Shown: positions 5,194-28,916 of the stretch, piece by piece
Numbering within the stretch: position 1 is the stretch's first letter
Layout of the letters: each line of letters begins with the position of its first letter
Notes under the pieces: generated by a model
Told to the model about the DNA's origin: nothing
The model's database searches: none
What the model saw: only the letters and a program-made list of their open reading frames with translations
Made by a program: the position numbers and the translations under genes
Origin: a virus
Reading direction: 5' to 3' (one strand)
Length of the DNA: 29,122 bases
Virus record (IMG/VR): IMGVR_UViG_3300042876_000280
Span: 1 to 29,122 of that record

Positions 5194-6797
5194 GGCAGGA
5201 CGGGCCAGCGGCCGGTGCGGAAGTCGACCAGGACGTTTTCCACGATCGAGGTCCGTCCTGACGACGAGCCGATCTCGTTGTTTCCGAATTTGATTTTGTC
5301 CAGCTCGCCGCCGAGCTTCGAGGCTGAGATGTCCGGGTTGACGATGTTGGTGCCGGTGTAGAGTACCGTCAGATTTGTATCGTACATCCGAAGCCAGCCA
5401 CGACCGGAAGCGAAGTCCGCCTTGTATGTCACCCAGTAGGTTCCGTTCTCCGTGACGGTGTTTGTATTGCCGTGCGTCGTCGGGTTGCTTGACTCCTGGT
5501 TGACCGCGTAGTTGAGCCCCAGCTGCGCCGTGCCCGGATCAAGCTGGTGCATGACATAATTCCCTGTATCCGCCTCGTAGACACCGAGGTAGTCAATGAA
5601 CTGCGAACCCGCGCCCGCATTTGCTGGAGCATATTTGATGTAGAAAGAAATGACGGCGGAGGCGTAATACGATTTGATCCCGGTGGCCCAGTCGATCGTG
5701 TTTTGGGAAACGTTGTGACTGATGTGGATCGAGTGGGTGTCGTTGGTTGGCGCGATTACAGTCCCCTCGGCGTCCCCGAGGCGCACCGGACGATTGCGCC
5801 GTGGAAATGCCGACGCCTGGATTGAGATCGTATTCGTCGCCGCATTAACGGCCGTGTTTGACGTGTCTCCCCCTAGCATGACCGCGGCCCGCCTGGCGTT
5901 GTGATCCAAAAAGTTTCCGTTCGTCTCGCCCTGCGCCGTCAGGAACATTGTCGCAAAGTTGGTGAAATACTCGGTTGTCGGGATCACCAACTGGCGAGGC
6001 TTTATTTCCACGAGGACGACGCCCCACGATCTAGCCGTCGACTTTTGACAGGTGAACGTTGATTGGTAGTCCGGGATGCACATCCCGACAAAGTTGCACA
6101 TCCCCAGCGGTGGCGTATTGACGGCGATCTCCAGGATCTCGCTCATCCCGTTCGTGTGTCGGTTGCAATCCGTGGCGGAGTTGACGTTGTCCCCGACGGC
6201 GGCAAACCAGGCGTTAGTCCATGGCAAACTCGGCGTCGACATGGTGATTGTCGGCGTCGCCGTTGCGCCTGCGTTCGTTCTGGCGGTCACGATGGCTCCG
6301 GACCCGTTGACCCCGGAGGTGTCCGCCCCGGTGAACATGTCCACGCTGGCAGCCATTGCAGTTGCGTTGGATGGATAGCCGATGGTCAGCGTTCCGTTCG
6401 TTGGGCTCCCCATGGCTCGGAACACGTAAATGGTGTTGGTTGGTCCCTGGTAAAAGCAGTTCGTCACCAGGTCCCATGTCACGCCGTTTCCGGTCACGGT
6501 CGGTTGTGGTGCCGTTCCGTTGGTTCGCCCCGTGATTACAGTTGCGAGCAGTAGCGCGTTGGTAAATGGGGTGTAAGCGCTGATTGTGAAATTTGTTCCG
6601 TCAGTCGTGGAAGACGTAGAACCGAGATTGGTATAAACCAAAAAGTCGTAATTGGTCTGCGTGGCCACGGACGCGGACTGGGCCCGAAACGCCCACGCCT
6701 GATAGAGCGCGGAGTTGATATTCAGGCCGGACTGACCAAACGCCAGAGCGACAAGCCAGCCGATGCAGATCCCAACTATTAGGAGTTTCCGAATCAT
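5190..6797 (-). CDS. Large secreted-type beta protein; fibre or lectin-like
   Basis: A 535-residue protein from the ATG at 6797, chosen because it overlaps the upstream stop as ATGA; an ATG at 6803 is also possible. It opens with a signal peptide (MIRKLLIVGICIGWLVALAF, then GQSG). Residues about 45-270 are strand-rich and Thr/Asn-rich with TGADTSGVNGSG-type loops. Residues about 350-530 include a concanavalin-like pattern (ASAVISFYIKYAPANAGAGS, GTYWVTYKADFASGRGWLRM) that ends in KIKFGNNEIGSSSGRTSIVE and VLVDFRTGRWP, like a laminin-G or lectin fold. It probably binds surface glycans. Its family was not identified with certainty. Confidence 0.65.
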   Translation of the reverse strand: MIRKLLIVGICIGWLVALAFGQSGLNINSALYQAWAFRAQSASVATQTNYDFLVYTNLGSTSSTTDGTNFTISAYTPFTNALLLATVITGRTNGTAPQPTVTGNGVTWDLVTNCFYQGPTNTIYVFRAMGSPTNGTLTIGYPSNATAMAASVDMFTGADTSGVNGSGAIVTARTNAGATATPTITMSTPSLPWTNAWFAAVGDNVNSATDCNRHTNGMSEILEIAVNTPPLGMCNFVGMCIPDYQSTFTCQKSTARSWGVVLVEIKPRQLVIPTTEYFTNFATMFLTAQGETNGNFLDHNARRAAVMLGGDTSNTAVNAATNTISIQASAFPRRNRPVRLGDAEGTVIAPTNDTHSIHISHNVSQNTIDWATGIKSYYASAVISFYIKYAPANAGAGSQFIDYLGVYEADTGNYVMHQLDPGTAQLGLNYAVNQESSNPTTHGNTNTVTENGTYWVTYKADFASGRGWLRMYDTNLTVLYTGTNIVNPDISASKLGGELDKIKFGNNEIGSSSGRTSIVENVLVDFRTGRWPVLP

Positions 6798-9025
6798 TGC
6801 CATGCCGTGATCGATGCGTGGACGTTCGTCCCAAAAAACGTGAGCGTGTAAACGTAGGTCACGCCCTGGGTAAGCGTGGTCCAAAGCGTGGAGTTTTGGT
6901 TCGTCCAGAATCTCGTGCCGTCGTAGCTGTTTCCTGCGGCCGGGTAGGTCACTCCGCGATTGATGAGCTGAGGAGTGATGCGGAACATCACCGACCCGCT
7001 GACGCCATCCTTGACGCCGGTGTAGTTGGTGAACGTCAGGTTGTTGGTCGCATAGAGATCGACGACGTTTGTCCGCAGGTTGACGACCACGTTTGACAGT
7101 GCGCTGTTCGTCGGAATCAGGGCCGTCTGCTGCGCGTAAAGCGTGTTGTTTAGGTTGGATAAGATGAGCAGGTTTTGCAGGTTTGTGAGGACACCTGTGG
7201 CGGGCTGGTAACTATTGGTCCACGGCGCGTTGGTGATCGCTCCGGTGCCTGACAGGTTCGTGAGGATTGCGCTGGCGGCCTGATAGGAGTTGGTCCACGG
7301 TGCGTTCGTGATTGCGCCGGTCCCGGCCAGATTGGTGAGCGTTGAACTTGCGGGTTGATAACTGTTGGTCCACGGCGCATTGGTGATTGCGCCAGTCCCA
7401 GCAAGGTTGGTCAGTGTCGCGCTCGCTGGCTGGTAACTATTGGTCCAAGGAGCGTTCGTGATCGCACCAGTTCCCGCCAAGTTGGTAAGCGTCTGCGAGT
7501 TGATCCGGAGTAGAATGTTGGTGCCCTGGTTGATTCCGCTGAGCAATTCGATCGGCTCAATCGAGCGCAGCAAGTTCGTGACGCCGGACTTGCCGTTGAC
7601 CAGTCCGAAGCGCGTTGCGTTCGTGACCGCAGACTCGCCGTTCACGTTTGCTTCACCTGTTCCTCCCCCGACATCCGTTCCGTTCGTCCACGTAGAGCTT
7701 GCCGCATCATACTTGAGCACCTGGCCGTCAGACACAGAAGGGAACGCCGGCGCGAGTTTAAGCGGGGAGTTTGTTGGATTTCCGGAGCCATTCAACTGCA
7801 AAACCATTCCGGCCGTCAGCGACGGAAGCGACATCCCGTAAAACGTCTGGTTGGTTTGCGAACCTCCAGAAAGCATGTTGCGTGTCTCGAAACTACGCAT
7901 CACAACATTTGTTTTAGAGCTATCATGAAACCGATATCTTGAAGCTTCTGACAAATCAAAAAAAGATGAAATATAAACCTCTGAGTCGAAACGAATACTT
8001 GTTGAGGAGCCTGACACGGTTGGTGTAAACACGATGCCAGCGGAATCGGGGTCTACTATAAGCGCGCTTTGAGTTCCATTTGACTTAAGGTTTATGTTAT
8101 TATAACTATAAACCTGTCCTAATTGTCTTGTCGTGGAATAGTTTGTTAATTCCGGACCACCGTTAATATCTCCAAGTGTGGCTCCATTAGTAGCCATCAA
8201 CCGACCAGCGACCCAGTTGCTGCCGTAGGTGATGGAATTGGTTAGGAGTGCTCCGGAAGACCGCAACGCAGAGACGTAATTCGTCCCCTGCAAATAGGTA
8301 TTCGTTCCTCTGATGTAAGTAGTGTATGCAGGATCGCCTAAATACAAGTTCCATCCTGAATCATTTGTTGCGACTGTAGAAAATACCAAGCCAGCAGGCT
8401 CTTGAAAAAAGCGAATGCCAAATTCGTTGATCCAATATCCCGCTTCGTCCGGCCCAAAATTCAAGATAAATGCCGAATTGGGGTCGGCTGATAAGGACGG
8501 CAAAATTGCCTGTATCGACGCAAACGTCGGCACCGAACTTGTCGGGTCGATGCCTCCCAAATACATGATGTTGGTAGTTCCCTCGTTTCTGAACTGCAAA
8601 TAAGGCGCGAGGTTTGTGGCGTTGGCCAGAGCGATTTTGGAAAATCCAGTCCCAGTCAATACCGTAGTCCAGACAGGCTCGCGATTTGTCGAATCAAAAT
8701 AGGTTATGAGATTAGTCAACGCAGCTCCGCTCTTAATCGTGATCCGTCCATCCGTCTGCGCTGCGAACTGATTTGCGTTCGTCGTCAGGCTTCCGCCACC
8801 GCCACCGCTGGCCGAAAGCGTGGTCCCATCCCACGTGAGGTTTGCGCCGATTGTAACGGTCGCCAGGTTCGTGCCGGAATCGAGTCGCAGCAGAGACGAC
8901 GACGCCTGACCACCGGTGAGCTTGAGTCCCAGGGCCCAGATCGTGGTGCGGTATTTGGTGGTCCCGGCAGCGATGCAGCACAGTGCGACAATCGCCAGTG
9001 CCAGCGTTGTGAGTTTGCGGTTCAT
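6794..9025 (-). CDS. Tail fibre-like protein with signal segment and tandem repeats
   Basis: A 743-residue, Thr/Asn/Ser-rich protein. Residues 1-21 (MNRKLTTLALAIVALCCIAA) are a signal peptide-like segment. Residues about 90-400 are encoded by clearly AT-richer DNA. A GGGTGEANVNGESAVTNATR segment follows, then four 25-residue repeats of the type LTNLAGTGAITNAPWTNSYQ (about residues 510-610). A C-terminal strand domain (GVKDGVSGSVMFRITPQLIN and on) may be the receptor-binding tip. Repeats with short hydrophobic spacing are typical of trimeric fibres. It starts two bases after the tailspike stop and overlaps the next gene by ATGA. Confidence 0.75.
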   Translation of the reverse strand: MNRKLTTLALAIVALCCIAAGTTKYRTTIWALGLKLTGGQASSSLLRLDSGTNLATVTIGANLTWDGTTLSASGGGGGSLTTNANQFAAQTDGRITIKSGAALTNLITYFDSTNREPVWTTVLTGTGFSKIALANATNLAPYLQFRNEGTTNIMYLGGIDPTSSVPTFASIQAILPSLSADPNSAFILNFGPDEAGYWINEFGIRFFQEPAGLVFSTVATNDSGWNLYLGDPAYTTYIRGTNTYLQGTNYVSALRSSGALLTNSITYGSNWVAGRLMATNGATLGDINGGPELTNYSTTRQLGQVYSYNNINLKSNGTQSALIVDPDSAGIVFTPTVSGSSTSIRFDSEVYISSFFDLSEASRYRFHDSSKTNVVMRSFETRNMLSGGSQTNQTFYGMSLPSLTAGMVLQLNGSGNPTNSPLKLAPAFPSVSDGQVLKYDAASSTWTNGTDVGGGTGEANVNGESAVTNATRFGLVNGKSGVTNLLRSIEPIELLSGINQGTNILLRINSQTLTNLAGTGAITNAPWTNSYQPASATLTNLAGTGAITNAPWTNSYQPASSTLTNLAGTGAITNAPWTNSYQAASAILTNLSGTGAITNAPWTNSYQPATGVLTNLQNLLILSNLNNTLYAQQTALIPTNSALSNVVVNLRTNVVDLYATNNLTFTNYTGVKDGVSGSVMFRITPQLINRGVTYPAAGNSYDGTRFWTNQNSTLWTTLTQGVTYVYTLTFFGTNVHASITAWQ
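7190..7497 (-). repeat. Tandem 75-bp coding repeats in fibre gene
   Basis: Four in-frame copies with a 75-bp period (TTGGTCC at 7215, 7290, 7365 and 7440), each coding a 25-residue unit LTNLAGTGAITNAPWTNSYQ plus PASAT-type residues. Copies differ mainly at third codon positions, so the protein sequence is kept while the DNA drifts, which points to selection on the repeat at protein level. Confidence 0.9.
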
Positions 9026-24851: not shown

Positions 24852-25297
24852 AGATCACCTCCGTCGTCATCGTCCCAATCCAGCTTTGCATCGTGCCGCT
24901 TTGCTGCACCGCCCAAGTCATCGAACGCTTTGCGGACTGCGGTTGTCTTACGCTCCGCAGACTTGCGCTCGCGTAACTTTTCTTCCAAGGACTCCTCGCA
25001 TCTCTTGATGTATGCCTCAGGCCCGCCGACGGGTTGCCCGTGTCGACGTTCAAACTCAGCCAAGGACATCATTTTTGTCTCCGCTATCCGTTTCGCCTCG
25101 CGACTCAGTTCCTCCTCAGTGGCGATTCCACGGATGGGCTGCAGTCCAGAAATGAGTGCTTCCACTGCCTTGATCGCTTCTGTCGCGCTTTCTCCCGCCG
25201 GGATGTCCACCGTCAGCTCATAACGGATGTGCTCGTAGTTCCCAAGGTTGTATACCCGACCGACGGAAATGCGGCTGATTCGTGTTTTGTCGCTCAC
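24848..25297 (-). CDS. Unknown early protein, 149 aa
   Basis: A 149-residue protein with a GTG start. The N-terminal half is strand-rich (ISVGRVYNLGNYEHIRYELT then VDIPAGESATEAIKAVEALI), a type seen beside phage recombination genes. The C-terminal half is charged and helical, ending in an acidic DWDDDDGGDL, reminiscent of the acidic tails of single-strand DNA-binding accessory proteins. No family name can be given with confidence. Its own end encodes GGAGGTGA for the next gene. Confidence 0.6.
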   Translation of the reverse strand: MSDKTRISRISVGRVYNLGNYEHIRYELTVDIPAGESATEAIKAVEALISGLQPIRGIATEEELSREAKRIAETKMMSLAEFERRHGQPVGGPEAYIKRCEESLEEKLRERKSAERKTTAVRKAFDDLGGAAKRHDAKLDWDDDDGGDL

Positions 25298-25875
25298 TTG
25301 GCACCTCCGATCCGGTTATCGCGCATCCACCGATAGACCTCTGAGCAGGCACGCACGTCCGCCAGCGCGTCGTGCGCCCCTTGGAATTCCGTGCCGAACG
25401 CATGTCGATAGGCCTCTTGCAGTTTCGGCCACTTGTAGTCCCCGTAATTCCCGGGAAATTTACAAATCGGAGTCATCGCGAGCATGGTGCAAAACGAATC
25501 GTAACCAACGAGCGTCCCGACGCACTGAGTAGCACGCTGGAATGCGGCACTTACTACCAGATCATCGAATGCGATGTTGTGTGCGACGCGAAGTGCGGAA
25601 AGCCGCTTGAACTCGTCAAACGCACTCAAGGCCACGTGGACCGAAACCCCATACTTGGCCGCCATTTCCGTTGTGATTCCATGAATGTTGGAGGCCTCAG
25701 ATGGGATGTCGTAACCATCGGGCTTGATGACGTAGCTAAACGATCCGCGCTCGCTCCAGTCGCATTCATCGATCAGTAATCCCGCGATCTGGACAATGTG
25801 AGGCTGATGTTTCGCGCCTGCCGGGGCTCGAAAGTCCGCCTTTCCAGTGGTCTCAGTGTCGAAGAAAAAGATCAC
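25294..25875 (-). CDS. DnaQ-type 3'-5' exonuclease (DEDDh)
   Basis: A 193-residue protein with a GTG start overlapping the annealase stop. ExoI motif FFFDTETTG (D6, E8), ExoII HNIAFDD (D104) and ExoIII AHDALADV (H168, D173) place it in the DEDDh exonuclease family (DnaQ, ExoX type). It degrades single-stranded DNA or RNA from the 3' end using two metal ions. Being directly downstream of the annealase it may supply its nuclease partner or perform end trimming. The upstream gene's last codons (GGGAGGTGCC) carry its ribosome binding site. Confidence 0.88.
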   Translation of the reverse strand: MIFFFDTETTGKADFRAPAGAKHQPHIVQIAGLLIDECDWSERGSFSYVIKPDGYDIPSEASNIHGITTEMAAKYGVSVHVALSAFDEFKRLSALRVAHNIAFDDLVVSAAFQRATQCVGTLVGYDSFCTMLAMTPICKFPGNYGDYKWPKLQEAYRHAFGTEFQGAHDALADVRACSEVYRWMRDNRIGGAK

Positions 25876-26876
25876 TTGGCACCTCCCTTGATCTGCGCCA
25901 GCTGCTCCATGATCACCTTGCTGCTGGTGCGTCCAAGAACTGCGCGAAGCAATCGCTGTGCATCGGCCGTCGGAATCTCGTCCCAGTCACCCAGCGATTC
26001 AGCATCTTTGAGGCTTCCGGACTGGTCGCACCACCGCCGGAACTCATCGAAGCCGAAACCAGACAAGCCAAGCACTCGCGCTAGCTCCGACTGCGGCGAA
26101 GCCGATGACTTCTGAGTTGCCGCCGCCGTCTCGGGCGCAAGACCAGCCTCAGACTCCTCGCGCTCGTCGCTGGTCTGAGATGCCGACGACGATTCCTCGA
26201 TGGCCGGAGCGTTGCGGACATCCACCAATTTCCCAATCGCCTCCGCGTCTGTCTTGCGGCCGGACACGTCAAGGCTGACCTCCTCGCGCATGTAGAGTCC
26301 GCCAAGCATCGTCGGGAAGGCGGACCGCAGCGCGTCGGCCTCTGCGCACTTGCAGATCATCCCGGCGGGATCAACCTGCCACTGCGCGAAGCCTTTGTTG
26401 AACCGCTCAAGCCGGATGCGGCGATGAATCGGGTGGGAGCGATTTTTGAAAAAGACCGTGGCCCATCCGCCGACGATCTTCTGGTTTGGCAGGTGAAAGT
26501 CGCCCTCCACCTCTGTCGTTTTCCCAGAGTCTTCGTCATCGAGGACGATGATGCCCGATTTCATCCCATCAAACTCCGGGTGAATCTCGGCCCGTTTGAG
26601 GAACGCCTGATGAGCCGTGATGAGCGAGAACTCGGGACCGTTTTTCCCGTCGTAGCCGATGAGGAACGCGTCCCCCTCGAACGGGTTTAGCCGCCGCGCC
26701 TGGCACATCATCATGAATTTGAGCGCGTCACGATCGGAGCATGTCTTTCCGCTCCGAGTCGGCACCGCCACTACGTTCTTGATGATCGAAACGCTCAGCT
26801 TGATGGCGTCGCTGCTGCCGTATGGGACGAAGGACATCACCTTGTCGTCGGGTCTCTGTGCGATGCTCGCGCTCAC
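25872..26876 (-). CDS. Single-strand annealing protein, Bet/RecT family
   Basis: A 334-residue protein from a GTG at 26876 with a strong GGAGG six bases before it. It has FMMMCQARRLNPFEGDAFLI then GYDGKNGPEFSLITAHQAFL, and PAGMICKCAEADALRSAFPT, which are hallmarks of phage Bet annealases. Residues about 225-270 are a Ser/Glu-rich linker and the last 60 residues a small C-terminal domain. It pairs complementary single strands in phage recombination and replication. It is the first gene of the GTG-start block. Confidence 0.9.
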   Translation of the reverse strand: MSASIAQRPDDKVMSFVPYGSSDAIKLSVSIIKNVVAVPTRSGKTCSDRDALKFMMMCQARRLNPFEGDAFLIGYDGKNGPEFSLITAHQAFLKRAEIHPEFDGMKSGIIVLDDEDSGKTTEVEGDFHLPNQKIVGGWATVFFKNRSHPIHRRIRLERFNKGFAQWQVDPAGMICKCAEADALRSAFPTMLGGLYMREEVSLDVSGRKTDAEAIGKLVDVRNAPAIEESSSASQTSDEREESEAGLAPETAAATQKSSASPQSELARVLGLSGFGFDEFRRWCDQSGSLKDAESLGDWDEIPTADAQRLLRAVLGRTSSKVIMEQLAQIKGGAK

Positions 26877-26971: not shown

Positions 26972-27253
26972 TTAAACCTCCAGCTCCGGTTGATTCGGGT
27001 CAGGGATTGGACACGTCGCAACGAGCTTGCGCTTTGTGCTCCACGCAAGCGCGGTTTCCATGCGGTCAGCGTCGATGTCCAGTGTGATAGTGAAGCCGAT
27101 TCGAAGCTTCGGCTTGGTCTCTTGCAACTGCGCTTCCTCGGCGGTCTCAGCCCACGCCTTGTTGATGTCGTCCTCCGCTTCGGAGATGAGCTGCTTGAGG
27201 TTCCCGGCCGCGAGGTTTGCGATTGCTTCGAGTTTGGTGTTGGGGGTGTTCAT
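26972..27253 (-). CDS. Unknown early protein, 93 aa
   Basis: A 93-residue protein starting MNTPNTKLEAIANLAAGNLK, from an ATG overlapping the upstream stop (ATGA). The N-terminal half is acidic and helical (QLISEAEDDINKAWAETAEE), then a strand segment (KLRIGFTITLDIDADRMETA, LAWSTKRKLVATCPIPD). The pattern is known to me from small phage early proteins but has no function assigned. It lies directly upstream of the annealase. Confidence 0.6.
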   Translation of the reverse strand: MNTPNTKLEAIANLAAGNLKQLISEAEDDINKAWAETAEEAQLQETKPKLRIGFTITLDIDADRMETALAWSTKRKLVATCPIPDPNQPELEV

Positions 27254-27699
27254 GCGATTTGTTTTTGATTGCGCTGCATCAGCGCGAGCTTGTTGGCGAG
27301 CCGTTCATGGATCGATGTATGGCGGTCGCGCTCCTCGTTTGTAAGTTTGGAAGTGTCGGTTTTCCCGGCGAACTCAACAAGGCCTCTCAGGTGCCGGAAA
27401 TGAAGTCTGGCCTTTTGAACCACCACGTCGGCGTTATGCCGAGGGTGAATGAACACGTAGCGATCACTCCCAACGCCGTCGCAGTCGAGGAAAAGGCCGT
27501 GTTTCCGCATGAAGTATTCGCGGACGGCGGAAATGTCATTGCGCAGCCACGAGTCGTTGATGTTGCGATGGAATTTTTCCGCAAACCATGAAAGCGGGAT
27601 TTCCATGCCGTCAGTAGCGCCTTTGTTTTCCAGCTCCTCACAAACCCCCTTCCAAAGCGGGAGCCGTGCGACCTGTTCATTGTTTGTGTCTGTGATCAT
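27250..27699 (-). CDS. Unknown early protein, 149 aa
   Basis: A 149-residue protein starting MITDTNNEQVARLPLWKGVC. It contains EIPLSWFAEKFHRNINDSWL then RNDISAVREYFMRKHGLFLD, a helical DNA-binding-like arrangement with a following strand (VGSDRYVFIHP), and a C-terminal helix-rich part (KLTNEERDRHTSIHERLANK). It is a candidate winged-helix regulator, not recognised further. It is the first gene downstream of the repeat/hairpin interval, with a CAAAACAAAACAC leader before the ATG. Confidence 0.6.
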   Translation of the reverse strand: MITDTNNEQVARLPLWKGVCEELENKGATDGMEIPLSWFAEKFHRNINDSWLRNDISAVREYFMRKHGLFLDCDGVGSDRYVFIHPRHNADVVVQKARLHFRHLRGLVEFAGKTDTSKLTNEERDRHTSIHERLANKLALMQRNQKQIA

Positions 27700-27730
27700 G
27701 TGTTTTGTTTTGGTTCACCGTGAAATCTTC

Positions 27731-27748
27731 GGCGGGGTTGCCCCCGCC
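27731..27748 (-). ncRNA. Hairpin 1 with GCAA (GNRA) tetraloop
   Basis: Minus strand GGCGGGG-GCAA-CCCCGCC: a perfect 7-bp stem with a GNRA tetraloop, followed at once by GAAGATTTC. No U-run follows, so it is not a standard terminator. Listed as a candidate structured RNA element of unknown function. Confidence 0.5.
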
Positions 27749-27756
27749 GTGGGGTT

Positions 27757-27846
27757 GCCTTGCCCAAGCCTCGCCCTGCCTTGCCGAGCCGTGCCTGGCC
27801 ATGCCCTGCCGCGCCTTGCCCAAGCCCCGCGCGGCCTTGCCGGGCC
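27757..27846 (-). repeat. GGCNN pentanucleotide array A
   Basis: Seventeen GCC triplets on the plus strand at an almost strict 5-bp spacing (27757, 27762, 27768, then every 5 bases to 27818, then 27824, 27834, 27839, 27844), with the two bases between varying (TT, CA, CT, GA, GT, TG, AT, GC). On the transcript this is GGCNN. Confidence 0.9.
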
Positions 27847-27861
27847 GATCCCCGAAATCTT

Positions 27862-27879
27862 CTCCCCCCGAAGGGGGAG
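27862..27879 (-). ncRNA. Hairpin 2 with UUCG tetraloop
   Basis: Minus strand CTCCCCC-TTCG-GGGGGAG: a perfect 7-bp stem closed by C(UUCG)G, an unusually stable RNA tetraloop. It is followed by AAGATTTCGGGG, sharing the GAAGATTTC tag with hairpin 1. No U-run follows. Confidence 0.5.
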
Positions 27880-27886
27880 TGTTGTT

Positions 27887-27949
27887 GCCATGCCTCGCCG
27901 CGCCGGGCCGCGCCAAGCCATGCCTCGCCATGGCTCGCCCAGCCGCGCT
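27887..27949 (-). repeat. GGCNN pentanucleotide array B
   Basis: GCC on the plus strand at 27887, 27892, 27897, 27902, 27907, 27912, 27917, 27922, 27927, 27937 and 27942, all in one 5-bp phase, with degenerate GGC/GCT units at 27932 and 27947. Intervening pairs vary (AT, TC, GC, GG, AA). Confidence 0.9.
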
Positions 27950-27960
27950 AAAAAATCCCA

Positions 27961-28203
27961 TCACCACCTCGGCCTCCCCGTGTCCTTGGCCGGTTCCTGC
28001 CCGCACTCGCGCATGAATGTCACGGCAGCGTCGCGGCTCTTGAAGTCGTAGCACTGGCCATCCTCGAACACGTGCCATCGGCCGGTCGGCTCGTGAAACG
28101 TCGGGCCAGACCAAACCGGCGGCTCAGGCGGCGGCAGCTGGTTGTCAAAAGAGCGCTGCGCGGACTTCATCGCGGCAACGTCGCGGGAGTGGGAGTCGCT
28201 CAT
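27961..28203 (-). CDS. Unknown small protein, 80 aa
   Basis: An 80-residue protein starting MSDSHSRDVAAMKSAQRSFD, from an ATG overlapping the upstream stop (ATGA). After a Pro-rich part it has GPTFHEPTGRWHVFEDGQCY then DFKSRDAAVTFMRECGQEPA, a short strand pair plus helix like AP2-type or integrase arm DNA-binding folds. That resemblance is weak. Function unknown. Confidence 0.6.
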   Translation of the reverse strand: MSDSHSRDVAAMKSAQRSFDNQLPPPEPPVWSGPTFHEPTGRWHVFEDGQCYDFKSRDAAVTFMRECGQEPAKDTGRPRW

Positions 28204-28916
28204 CGGCAGATCCTTTCAATTCGGGCGCAGGCGCGGCGGGTGATTAGCGGCGAACTAGCGATAGAGAAGCGGTCGCGGCGGAACCGAGCGAGGCCACGGT
28301 TCCATGCGGCGTATAGTTCGGATCTGGTGGGATTCCTGCCGAGCGCGACCGTTAGGGAGGATTCTAGAATCTGGAAATACTCGCGAGCATAGGCGCGGGA
28401 GACCGTGGGGTTGAGAGCGCCGCCCGTATAAGGAGCGACTGATTCTCCACGGCGCTCCCGCGCTCTACTCACACTCTGCCAAGCGGCAGCGTGAAATTGA
28501 AAGCGGCCCCTGGCGCGTCCTGCATCGCCAAGGGCCGTGTCGCATCCCTGCGACTCGATGACGGCAACAGCGTCGAGGAAACGCTCCGTCACCGCTGAGG
28601 CACCGGAGCACGACCGGCACCCCAGAATAATCAGGCCAATGAGGGTGATGAGCCCACAGAGCCCGATAAATGGAATGCACGCGGAACCATCCGCGCGAAG
28701 CTGCCGCCAGTTCCCGCCACCGGGACGGCTGGCCATTGAGACCTCCATCTGCCGATACCCGCCGTGATTCACGGACGCCGCGAACCGCGGCCGGTCGCAT
28801 GGCGACGGGAGGAAGGAAAATTCGGTGTGAGAATCGAAGACTTTTTCCTCGATGATCTCGCCGGGTTTAGCGTCCAGCGCGAGCGAAGGACGGTAGATGG
28901 TGACTAGGAGGTTCAT
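28200..28916 (-). CDS. Membrane-anchored lysozyme-fold / lytic transglycosylase-like protein
   Basis: A 238-residue protein from an ATG overlapping the upstream stop (ATGA). Residues 1-60 are a small strand-rich part (MNLLVTIYRPSLALDAKPGE). Residues about 79-99 are a hydrophobic anchor ending LIGLIILGC, which could also be a lipobox although far from the N terminus. Residues about 110-225 look like a lysozyme-type domain: LDAVAVIESQGCDTALGDAG then RARGRFQFHAAAWQ (likely catalytic Glu about 121) and ELYAAWNRGLARF. It would cut peptidoglycan from the membrane, for lysis or DNA entry. An ATG at M57 or M61 could start a shorter form. It is far from the late genes. Confidence 0.7.
   Translation of the reverse strand: MNLLVTIYRPSLALDAKPGEIIEEKVFDSHTEFSFLPSPCDRPRFAASVNHGGYRQMEVSMASRPGGGNWRQLRADGSACIPFIGLCGLITLIGLIILGCRSCSGASAVTERFLDAVAVIESQGCDTALGDAGRARGRFQFHAAAWQSVSRARERRGESVAPYTGGALNPTVSRAYAREYFQILESSLTVALGRNPTRSELYAAWNRGLARFRRDRFSIASSPLITRRACARIERICR

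What the first reader, a model, noticed from the sequence alone, without database searches (positions are those of the whole stretch)
27700..27960. Duplicated array-hairpin-tag module in the longest non-coding gap
On the transcribed strand two units of [GGCNN array, 7-bp hairpin with a stable tetraloop, GAAGATTTC tag] lie in tandem with a 132-bp offset, between a membrane-anchored lysozyme-like gene and an early regulator-like gene. Arrays keep strict 5-bp phase but vary at the two free bases, so phase and GG spacing seem to matter and not the exact sequence. It is not a CRISPR, terminator, or coding repeat that I know. It may be a non-coding RNA, a protein-binding array (half-turn spacing), or a replication or control site.
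Basis: seen in the sequence. Interest (0 to 1): 0.85.

Follow-up and report, generated by a model that had tools for sequence, protein, structure and literature searches.

The report
Two VIPR guide RNAs in phage
This gap in a phage genome encodes two guide RNAs of the recently described VIPR type (a CRISPR-like, phage-borne way of recognising DNA) next to the system's accessory gene; it is real and now explained, with one oddity: the VIPR effector gene that normally sits beside such guides is missing from this fragment.

Summary
On the minus strand, two units (27946-27854 and 27853-27722) each hold a (GGCNN)n tract, a hairpin and GAAGATTTC, far beyond chance. They match VIPR guide RNAs (vrRNAs), described in a 2026 preprint (PMC13142463): YNNGG repeats with variable NN, then a structured 3' tail. 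Evidence: (1) the same tract + hairpin + tag occurs in three other viral contigs, two with a Vipr gene beside it, and the stems covary; (2) 81 of 116 GGCNN-array loci have a Vipr gene, median 53 bp away, same strand 188:6; (3) the Vipr profile hits the solved "SUSP1 Vipr protein" and its model resembles Cas7/Csm3; (4) the window gene after the array (27250-27699) is a Vap1-family accessory protein. The window itself has no detectable vipr, although 29 of 29 close vap loci with enough upstream sequence have one. Deletion, relocation and assembly collapse all remain possible. No DNA target was found. Verdict: new member of a known kind, possibly a vipr-less variant.

The parts
27854..27946 (-). 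vrRNA unit A (guide RNA gene): GGCNN tract + hairpin + tag
   Evidence: same architecture beside vipr in L260, L261
27885..27944 (-). repeat tract A, 12 units; NN = TG GA AT GA AT TT GC CC GC GA AT AA (last AA belongs to the constant tail)
27863..27878 (-). tail hairpin A, UCCCCC-UUCG-GGGGGA
27854..27862 (-). tail tag A, GAAGATTTC
27722..27853 (-). vrRNA unit B (guide RNA gene)
27755..27846 (-). repeat tract B, about 18 units with two 6-nt steps; NN = CC AA CG GG TT(G) AA GC AG AT CA AC TC AA AG GA TT(G) AA AA
27731..27748 (-). tail hairpin B, GGCGGGG-GCAA-CCCCGCC
27722..27730 (-). tail tag B, GAAGATTTC
27250..27699 (-). vap gene (149 aa), Vap1-family accessory protein; starts 22 nt after tag B
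   Evidence: E 7e-14 to L016 vap; phrog_5926; vap-clade profile E 4e-15
28200..28916 (-). lysozyme/transglycosylase-like gene upstream of the guides, in the same relative place as in the L016 locus (synteny marker, not part of VIPR)

Best explanation
The element is a pair of vrRNA genes, the guide RNAs of a phage-borne VIPR locus, followed by the Vap1-family accessory gene. Each guide is a tandem GGY/NN tract: the GGY positions are held by a Vipr filament (a Cas7-like RAMP protein) and the NN dinucleotides together read a DNA target with one skipped base between dinucleotides. The hairpin and GAAGATTTC form the constant 3' tail. The complex would sit on a competitor's DNA and repress it. Shown here: tract, tail, covariation, homology to guides beside vipr genes, and the vap gene. 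Taken from the preprint on phage SUSP1: Vipr binding, the one-base-skip code, repression. Inferred: that these two guides are made and loaded. The vipr gene itself is not in this 29-kb fragment. In the related L016 locus it lies between two guide arrays, so it was probably deleted or moved, or the assembly collapsed across the similar arrays.
For: Same tract+hairpin+tag in three other viral contigs, two with vipr alongside; covarying hairpins; 81 of 116 array loci carry Vipr, median 53 bp away, same strand 188:6; Vipr profile matches PDB chain 'SUSP1 Vipr protein' E 2.4e-49 and SUSP1 ALH47069; model pLDDT 96.5 aligns to Csm3 with Z 11.6; window gene 27250-27699 is a vap homologue; synteny with L016; preprint definition of vrRNA.
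Against: No vipr in the window. No target found with the 1-nt-skip code. Unit B, at about 18 repeats with two phase shifts, is longer than the published 9-16. No expression data.
Confidence: 0.92

Rival explanations
1. Decayed VIPR locus: vipr was lost by recombination between the flanking guide arrays, and the guides and vap are non-functional leftovers in this phage.
For: No vipr in the window while 29 of 29 vap-clade loci with enough upstream sequence have it; unit B is irregular, with the same 14-mer twice, as if fused.
Against: The tails, the tetraloops and an intact 149-aa vap are preserved, which argues against long decay; the genome is incomplete.
Confidence: 0.3
2. Assembly collapse: the virus has a complete locus, but near-identical tails made the assembler skip the vipr segment.
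For: Tails of tandem units are near-identical over more than 30 nt in L260 and L261, and vipr is flanked by arrays on both sides in L016.
Against: The two window tails differ from each other; no reads available to test it.
Confidence: 0.25
3. vipr has moved to, or lies in, the part of the genome not covered by this contig.
For: The record is a linear 29-kb virus fragment; related records are 35-59 kb; a right-hand end lies 1.2 kb from the array.
Against: In relatives vipr lies 200-350 bp before vap, and the window has 1.4 kb there without it.
Confidence: 0.3
4. Protein-binding DNA array or replication/control site, with the 5-bp (half-turn) spacing read in double-stranded DNA.
For: Strict spacing in a non-coding gap.
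Against: Fixed orientation relative to vipr (188:6), RNA-like hairpin tails with covariation, and published sRNA-seq and pull-down of the homologous SUSP1 guides.
Confidence: 0.03
5. Chance low-complexity expansion (microsatellite).
For: Short GC-rich unit.
Against: NN vary freely while GGC is kept; far beyond shuffles; conserved tails in unrelated contigs.
Confidence: 0.01

Closest known systems
VIPR vrRNAs of SUSP1-like systems with Vap1 (PMC13142463)
   Same: GGY/NN tandem tract, variable NN, structured 3' tail, tandem arrays, vap1-family gene adjacent, phage-encoded
   Different: Tail sequence differs (hairpin + GAAGATTTC instead of SUSP1's tail); Y is C throughout; unit B is longer and has 6-nt steps; no vipr in the fragment
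VIPR loci L260, L261 and the L016 clade (found here, viral contigs)
   Same: Same tail architecture; L260 and L261 have the very same GAAGATTTC tag; L016 has the same gene order lysozyme-like - vrRNA - (vipr) - vrRNA - vap
   Different: They have vipr next to the guides; the window does not
Class 1 CRISPR-Cas (Cas7/Csm3 RAMP filament on a guide RNA)
   Same: The partner protein in relatives has a Cas7-like fold (Z 11.6 to Csm3)
   Different: No repeat-spacer array and no cas genes; information lies in scattered dinucleotides, not a contiguous spacer

Membership tests
VIPR guide RNA (vrRNA) | 9-16 tandem YNNGG (GGY/NN) repeats | tested here: met
   Unit A 12 repeats; unit B about 18 with two 6-nt steps, 11 of them in one perfect run
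VIPR guide RNA (vrRNA) | NN hypervariable while GGY is constant | tested here: met
   9 different NN among 11 and 5 among 9 in the perfect runs
VIPR guide RNA (vrRNA) | Invariant, structured 3' tail after the tract | tested here: met
   Hairpin + GAAGATTTC in both units and in L259, L260, L261; covariation
VIPR guide RNA (vrRNA) | Expressed as RNA and bound by Vipr | not testable with these tools
   No RNA-seq or binding data
VIPR guide RNA (vrRNA) | NN pair with a DNA target under the 1-nt skip rule | tested here: inconclusive
   No match in viral contigs or related records; host unknown, so the right DNA may not have been searched
VIPR system (complete) | vipr gene (RAMP protein) | tested here: inconclusive
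   Not found in the 29-kb fragment, but the genome is incomplete. So I file the RNAs as vrRNAs, not the phage as having a complete VIPR system
VIPR system (complete) | vap accessory gene | tested here: met
   27250-27699, Vap1 family
VIPR system (complete) | Phage or prophage setting | tested here: met
   Terminase, portal, head protease, RecT in the window
CRISPR array | Near-identical repeats of 20-40 bp separated by unique spacers | tested here: not met
   Repeat scan shows only the 5-nt degenerate period
Intrinsic terminator | Hairpin followed by a U run on the transcribed (minus) strand | tested here: not met
   Both minus-strand hairpins are followed by GAAGATTTC; none of the minus-strand terminator-like sites is here
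Rfam RNA families | Match at the gathering score | tested here: not met
   No match in the window

The most novel reading that the evidence does not exclude
A guide-only VIPR locus: the phage really lacks vipr but keeps two vrRNAs and Vap, so that its guides load into the Vipr of another phage or prophage in the same cell, either redirecting it or acting as decoys.
Probability: 0.12. Interest if true: 0.75.

Novelty: new member of a known kind. Interest (0 to 1): 0.5.

Why it matters
A reader working from raw sequence alone picked out a true guide-RNA locus of a system made public only in 2026. The work here adds a tail class (hairpin + GAAGATTTC) supported by covariation and links it to the Vap1 family. 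If the missing vipr is real, this would be a natural guide-only VIPR locus and would make it testable whether phages borrow or subvert each other's effector protein.

Tried and rejected
Rfam and tRNA scans: nothing. blastn against phages: no match. Coding repeat: the period of 5 is out of step with codons and shifts phase; the ORFs over it are mechanical. Weak Vipr-like hits in the array region with the first, untrimmed profile were low-complexity; a trimmed profile finds nothing. RecT-related phages carry no arrays in the fetched stretches. The window vap as a close-relative query found nothing; the L016 vap found 32 loci. Target decoding with 0-2 nt skips on 4.6 Mb of fetched DNA gave no excess over shuffled guides, and all same-type guides together showed no skip preference. 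That DNA set is small and the host is unknown, so this is not evidence against the code. Guide-only loci elsewhere: 35 of 116 array loci show no Vipr, but truncation and diverged Vipr types may explain them, so they are not counted as support. Terminase search for close relatives gave only a short identical contig without the array region. Structure prediction of Vap failed or was unavailable, so its predicted DNA-binding role rests on the preprint alone.

Full report
Observation. The 261-bp gap 27700-27960 reads, on the minus strand, as two head-to-tail units: a GGCNN tract, a 6-7 bp hairpin with a stable tetraloop (UUCG in one, GCAA in the other) and GAAGATTTC, with the tags 132 bp apart. 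The longest GCCNN run is 11 and there are 22 five-nt spacings, against maxima of 4 and 6 in 2000 dinucleotide shuffles. Nothing like it occurs elsewhere in the window.

Relatives. All-against-all BLASTP of the ORFs near these arrays showed one protein family next to the array in 72 of 114 loci. A literature search then found a 2026 preprint on VIPR systems (PMC13142463): phage-borne loci with a Cas7-like Vipr protein and vrRNAs of 9-16 YNNGG repeats ending in a structured 3' tail, whose NN dinucleotides read DNA with one skipped base. An iterated profile finds Vipr in 81 of 116 array loci, median distance 53 bp, on the GGC strand in 188 of 194 arrays. The family profile matches the PDB chain named SUSP1 Vipr protein (36pp, E 2.4e-49). 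The L261 Vipr model (pLDDT 96.5) aligns best with Csm-complex Cas7-like subunits (top row 6xn3_F, Z 11.6, rmsd 3.3 over 153 residues). In SUSP1 the genes are ALH47069 (phrog_4652) and ALH47068 (phrog_5926). I assign them as vipr and vap1 from homology, gene order and the flanking GGT arrays; the preprint text I read gives no accessions.

Same tail. Searching for the tail tag followed by GCCNN units gave exactly three other contigs. L260 and L261 carry several tandem units beside a Vipr gene. Across ten distinct tails the five basal pairs form in 97.9% of cells with 12 double changes; covariation score 0.711 against 0.177 in shuffles and at most 0.476 when slid. GC-rich stems and shared ancestry of units within a locus weaken this somewhat, but the two window tails alone differ in every basal pair but remain paired. 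In the L016 clade the architecture recurs with other stems and a TTT-bearing tag.

The vap gene. The window ORF 27250-27699, starting 22 nt after the second tag, matches an ORF in L016 at E 7e-14. A profile of vap proteins of the L016 clade finds it at 4e-15 and nothing else significant in the window. It also matches phrog_5926, the family of SUSP1 ALH47068; 11 of 15 aligned members match that family one by one. In L016 the order is lysozyme-like gene, vrRNA, vipr, vrRNAs, vap. The window has the lysozyme-like gene, a small ORF, two vrRNAs and vap. The window phage is related to both: head protease 54% identical to that of L016's record, terminase 50% to that of L261's record.

The missing effector. 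No Vipr is detectable in the window by trimmed profile, PHROG family or 40-sequence alignment; the PHROG search finds it in the records of L016, L260 and L261. In all 29 vap-clade loci with enough upstream sequence, vipr lies about 200-350 bp before vap; the three without it are cut off at the contig end. The window has 1.4 kb upstream of vap and no vipr there, so the contig end alone does not explain the absence. Deletion between flanking arrays, relocation to the missing part of the genome, and assembly collapse through similar tails all fit, and I cannot tell them apart without reads. The irregular unit B, with its repeated 14-mer, may be a scar of such an event (inference).

Mechanism. By homology the two RNAs would be loaded by a Vipr filament and would bind a competitor's DNA through NN pairs with one skipped base. 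Shown here: guide architecture, tail covariation, homology and synteny. Taken from the preprint: loading, code, repression. Not shown: transcription, loading and target. Target searches were negative, but the host is unknown and only viral contigs and fetched records were searched.

Verdict. The finding is genuine and is largely explained by a system published in 2026. It is a new member of a known kind; whether it is a vipr-less variant remains open.

Noticed in passing
window 7200-7497: Four tandem copies of a 75-bp unit inside the 743-aa ORF 6794-9025 (minus); a repeat protein with no PHROG or Pfam match.
   Followed up: no
window 25294-26876: A RecT-family annealing protein directly upstream of a DEDDh/RNase T-type exonuclease: a two-gene recombination module.
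   Followed up: no
L300 (IMGVR_UViG_3300044712_001318): A 5.8-kb contig from another sample with a terminase identical to the window's: the same or a very close virus occurs elsewhere.
   Followed up: no
L012, L037, L061, L087, L105 and others: GGCNN arrays with several kb of flank and no detectable Vipr: diverged Vipr types or further guide-only loci.
   Followed up: partly
phage records: Vipr homologues in 129 phage records (Felixounavirus, Salmonella, Mycobacterium, Gordonia phages), annotated in the listed records as hypothetical protein or not at all; PHROG phrog_4652, function unknown.
   Followed up: partly
L261 4700-5600: Tandem guides share runs of NN (for example TC CG TT GA GA, and TG AT GG TT), as if guides are shuffled by recombination.
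   Followed up: no
L260 7900-9000: Long repetitive ORFs rich in Arg, Ser and Pro overlapping on both strands.
   Followed up: no
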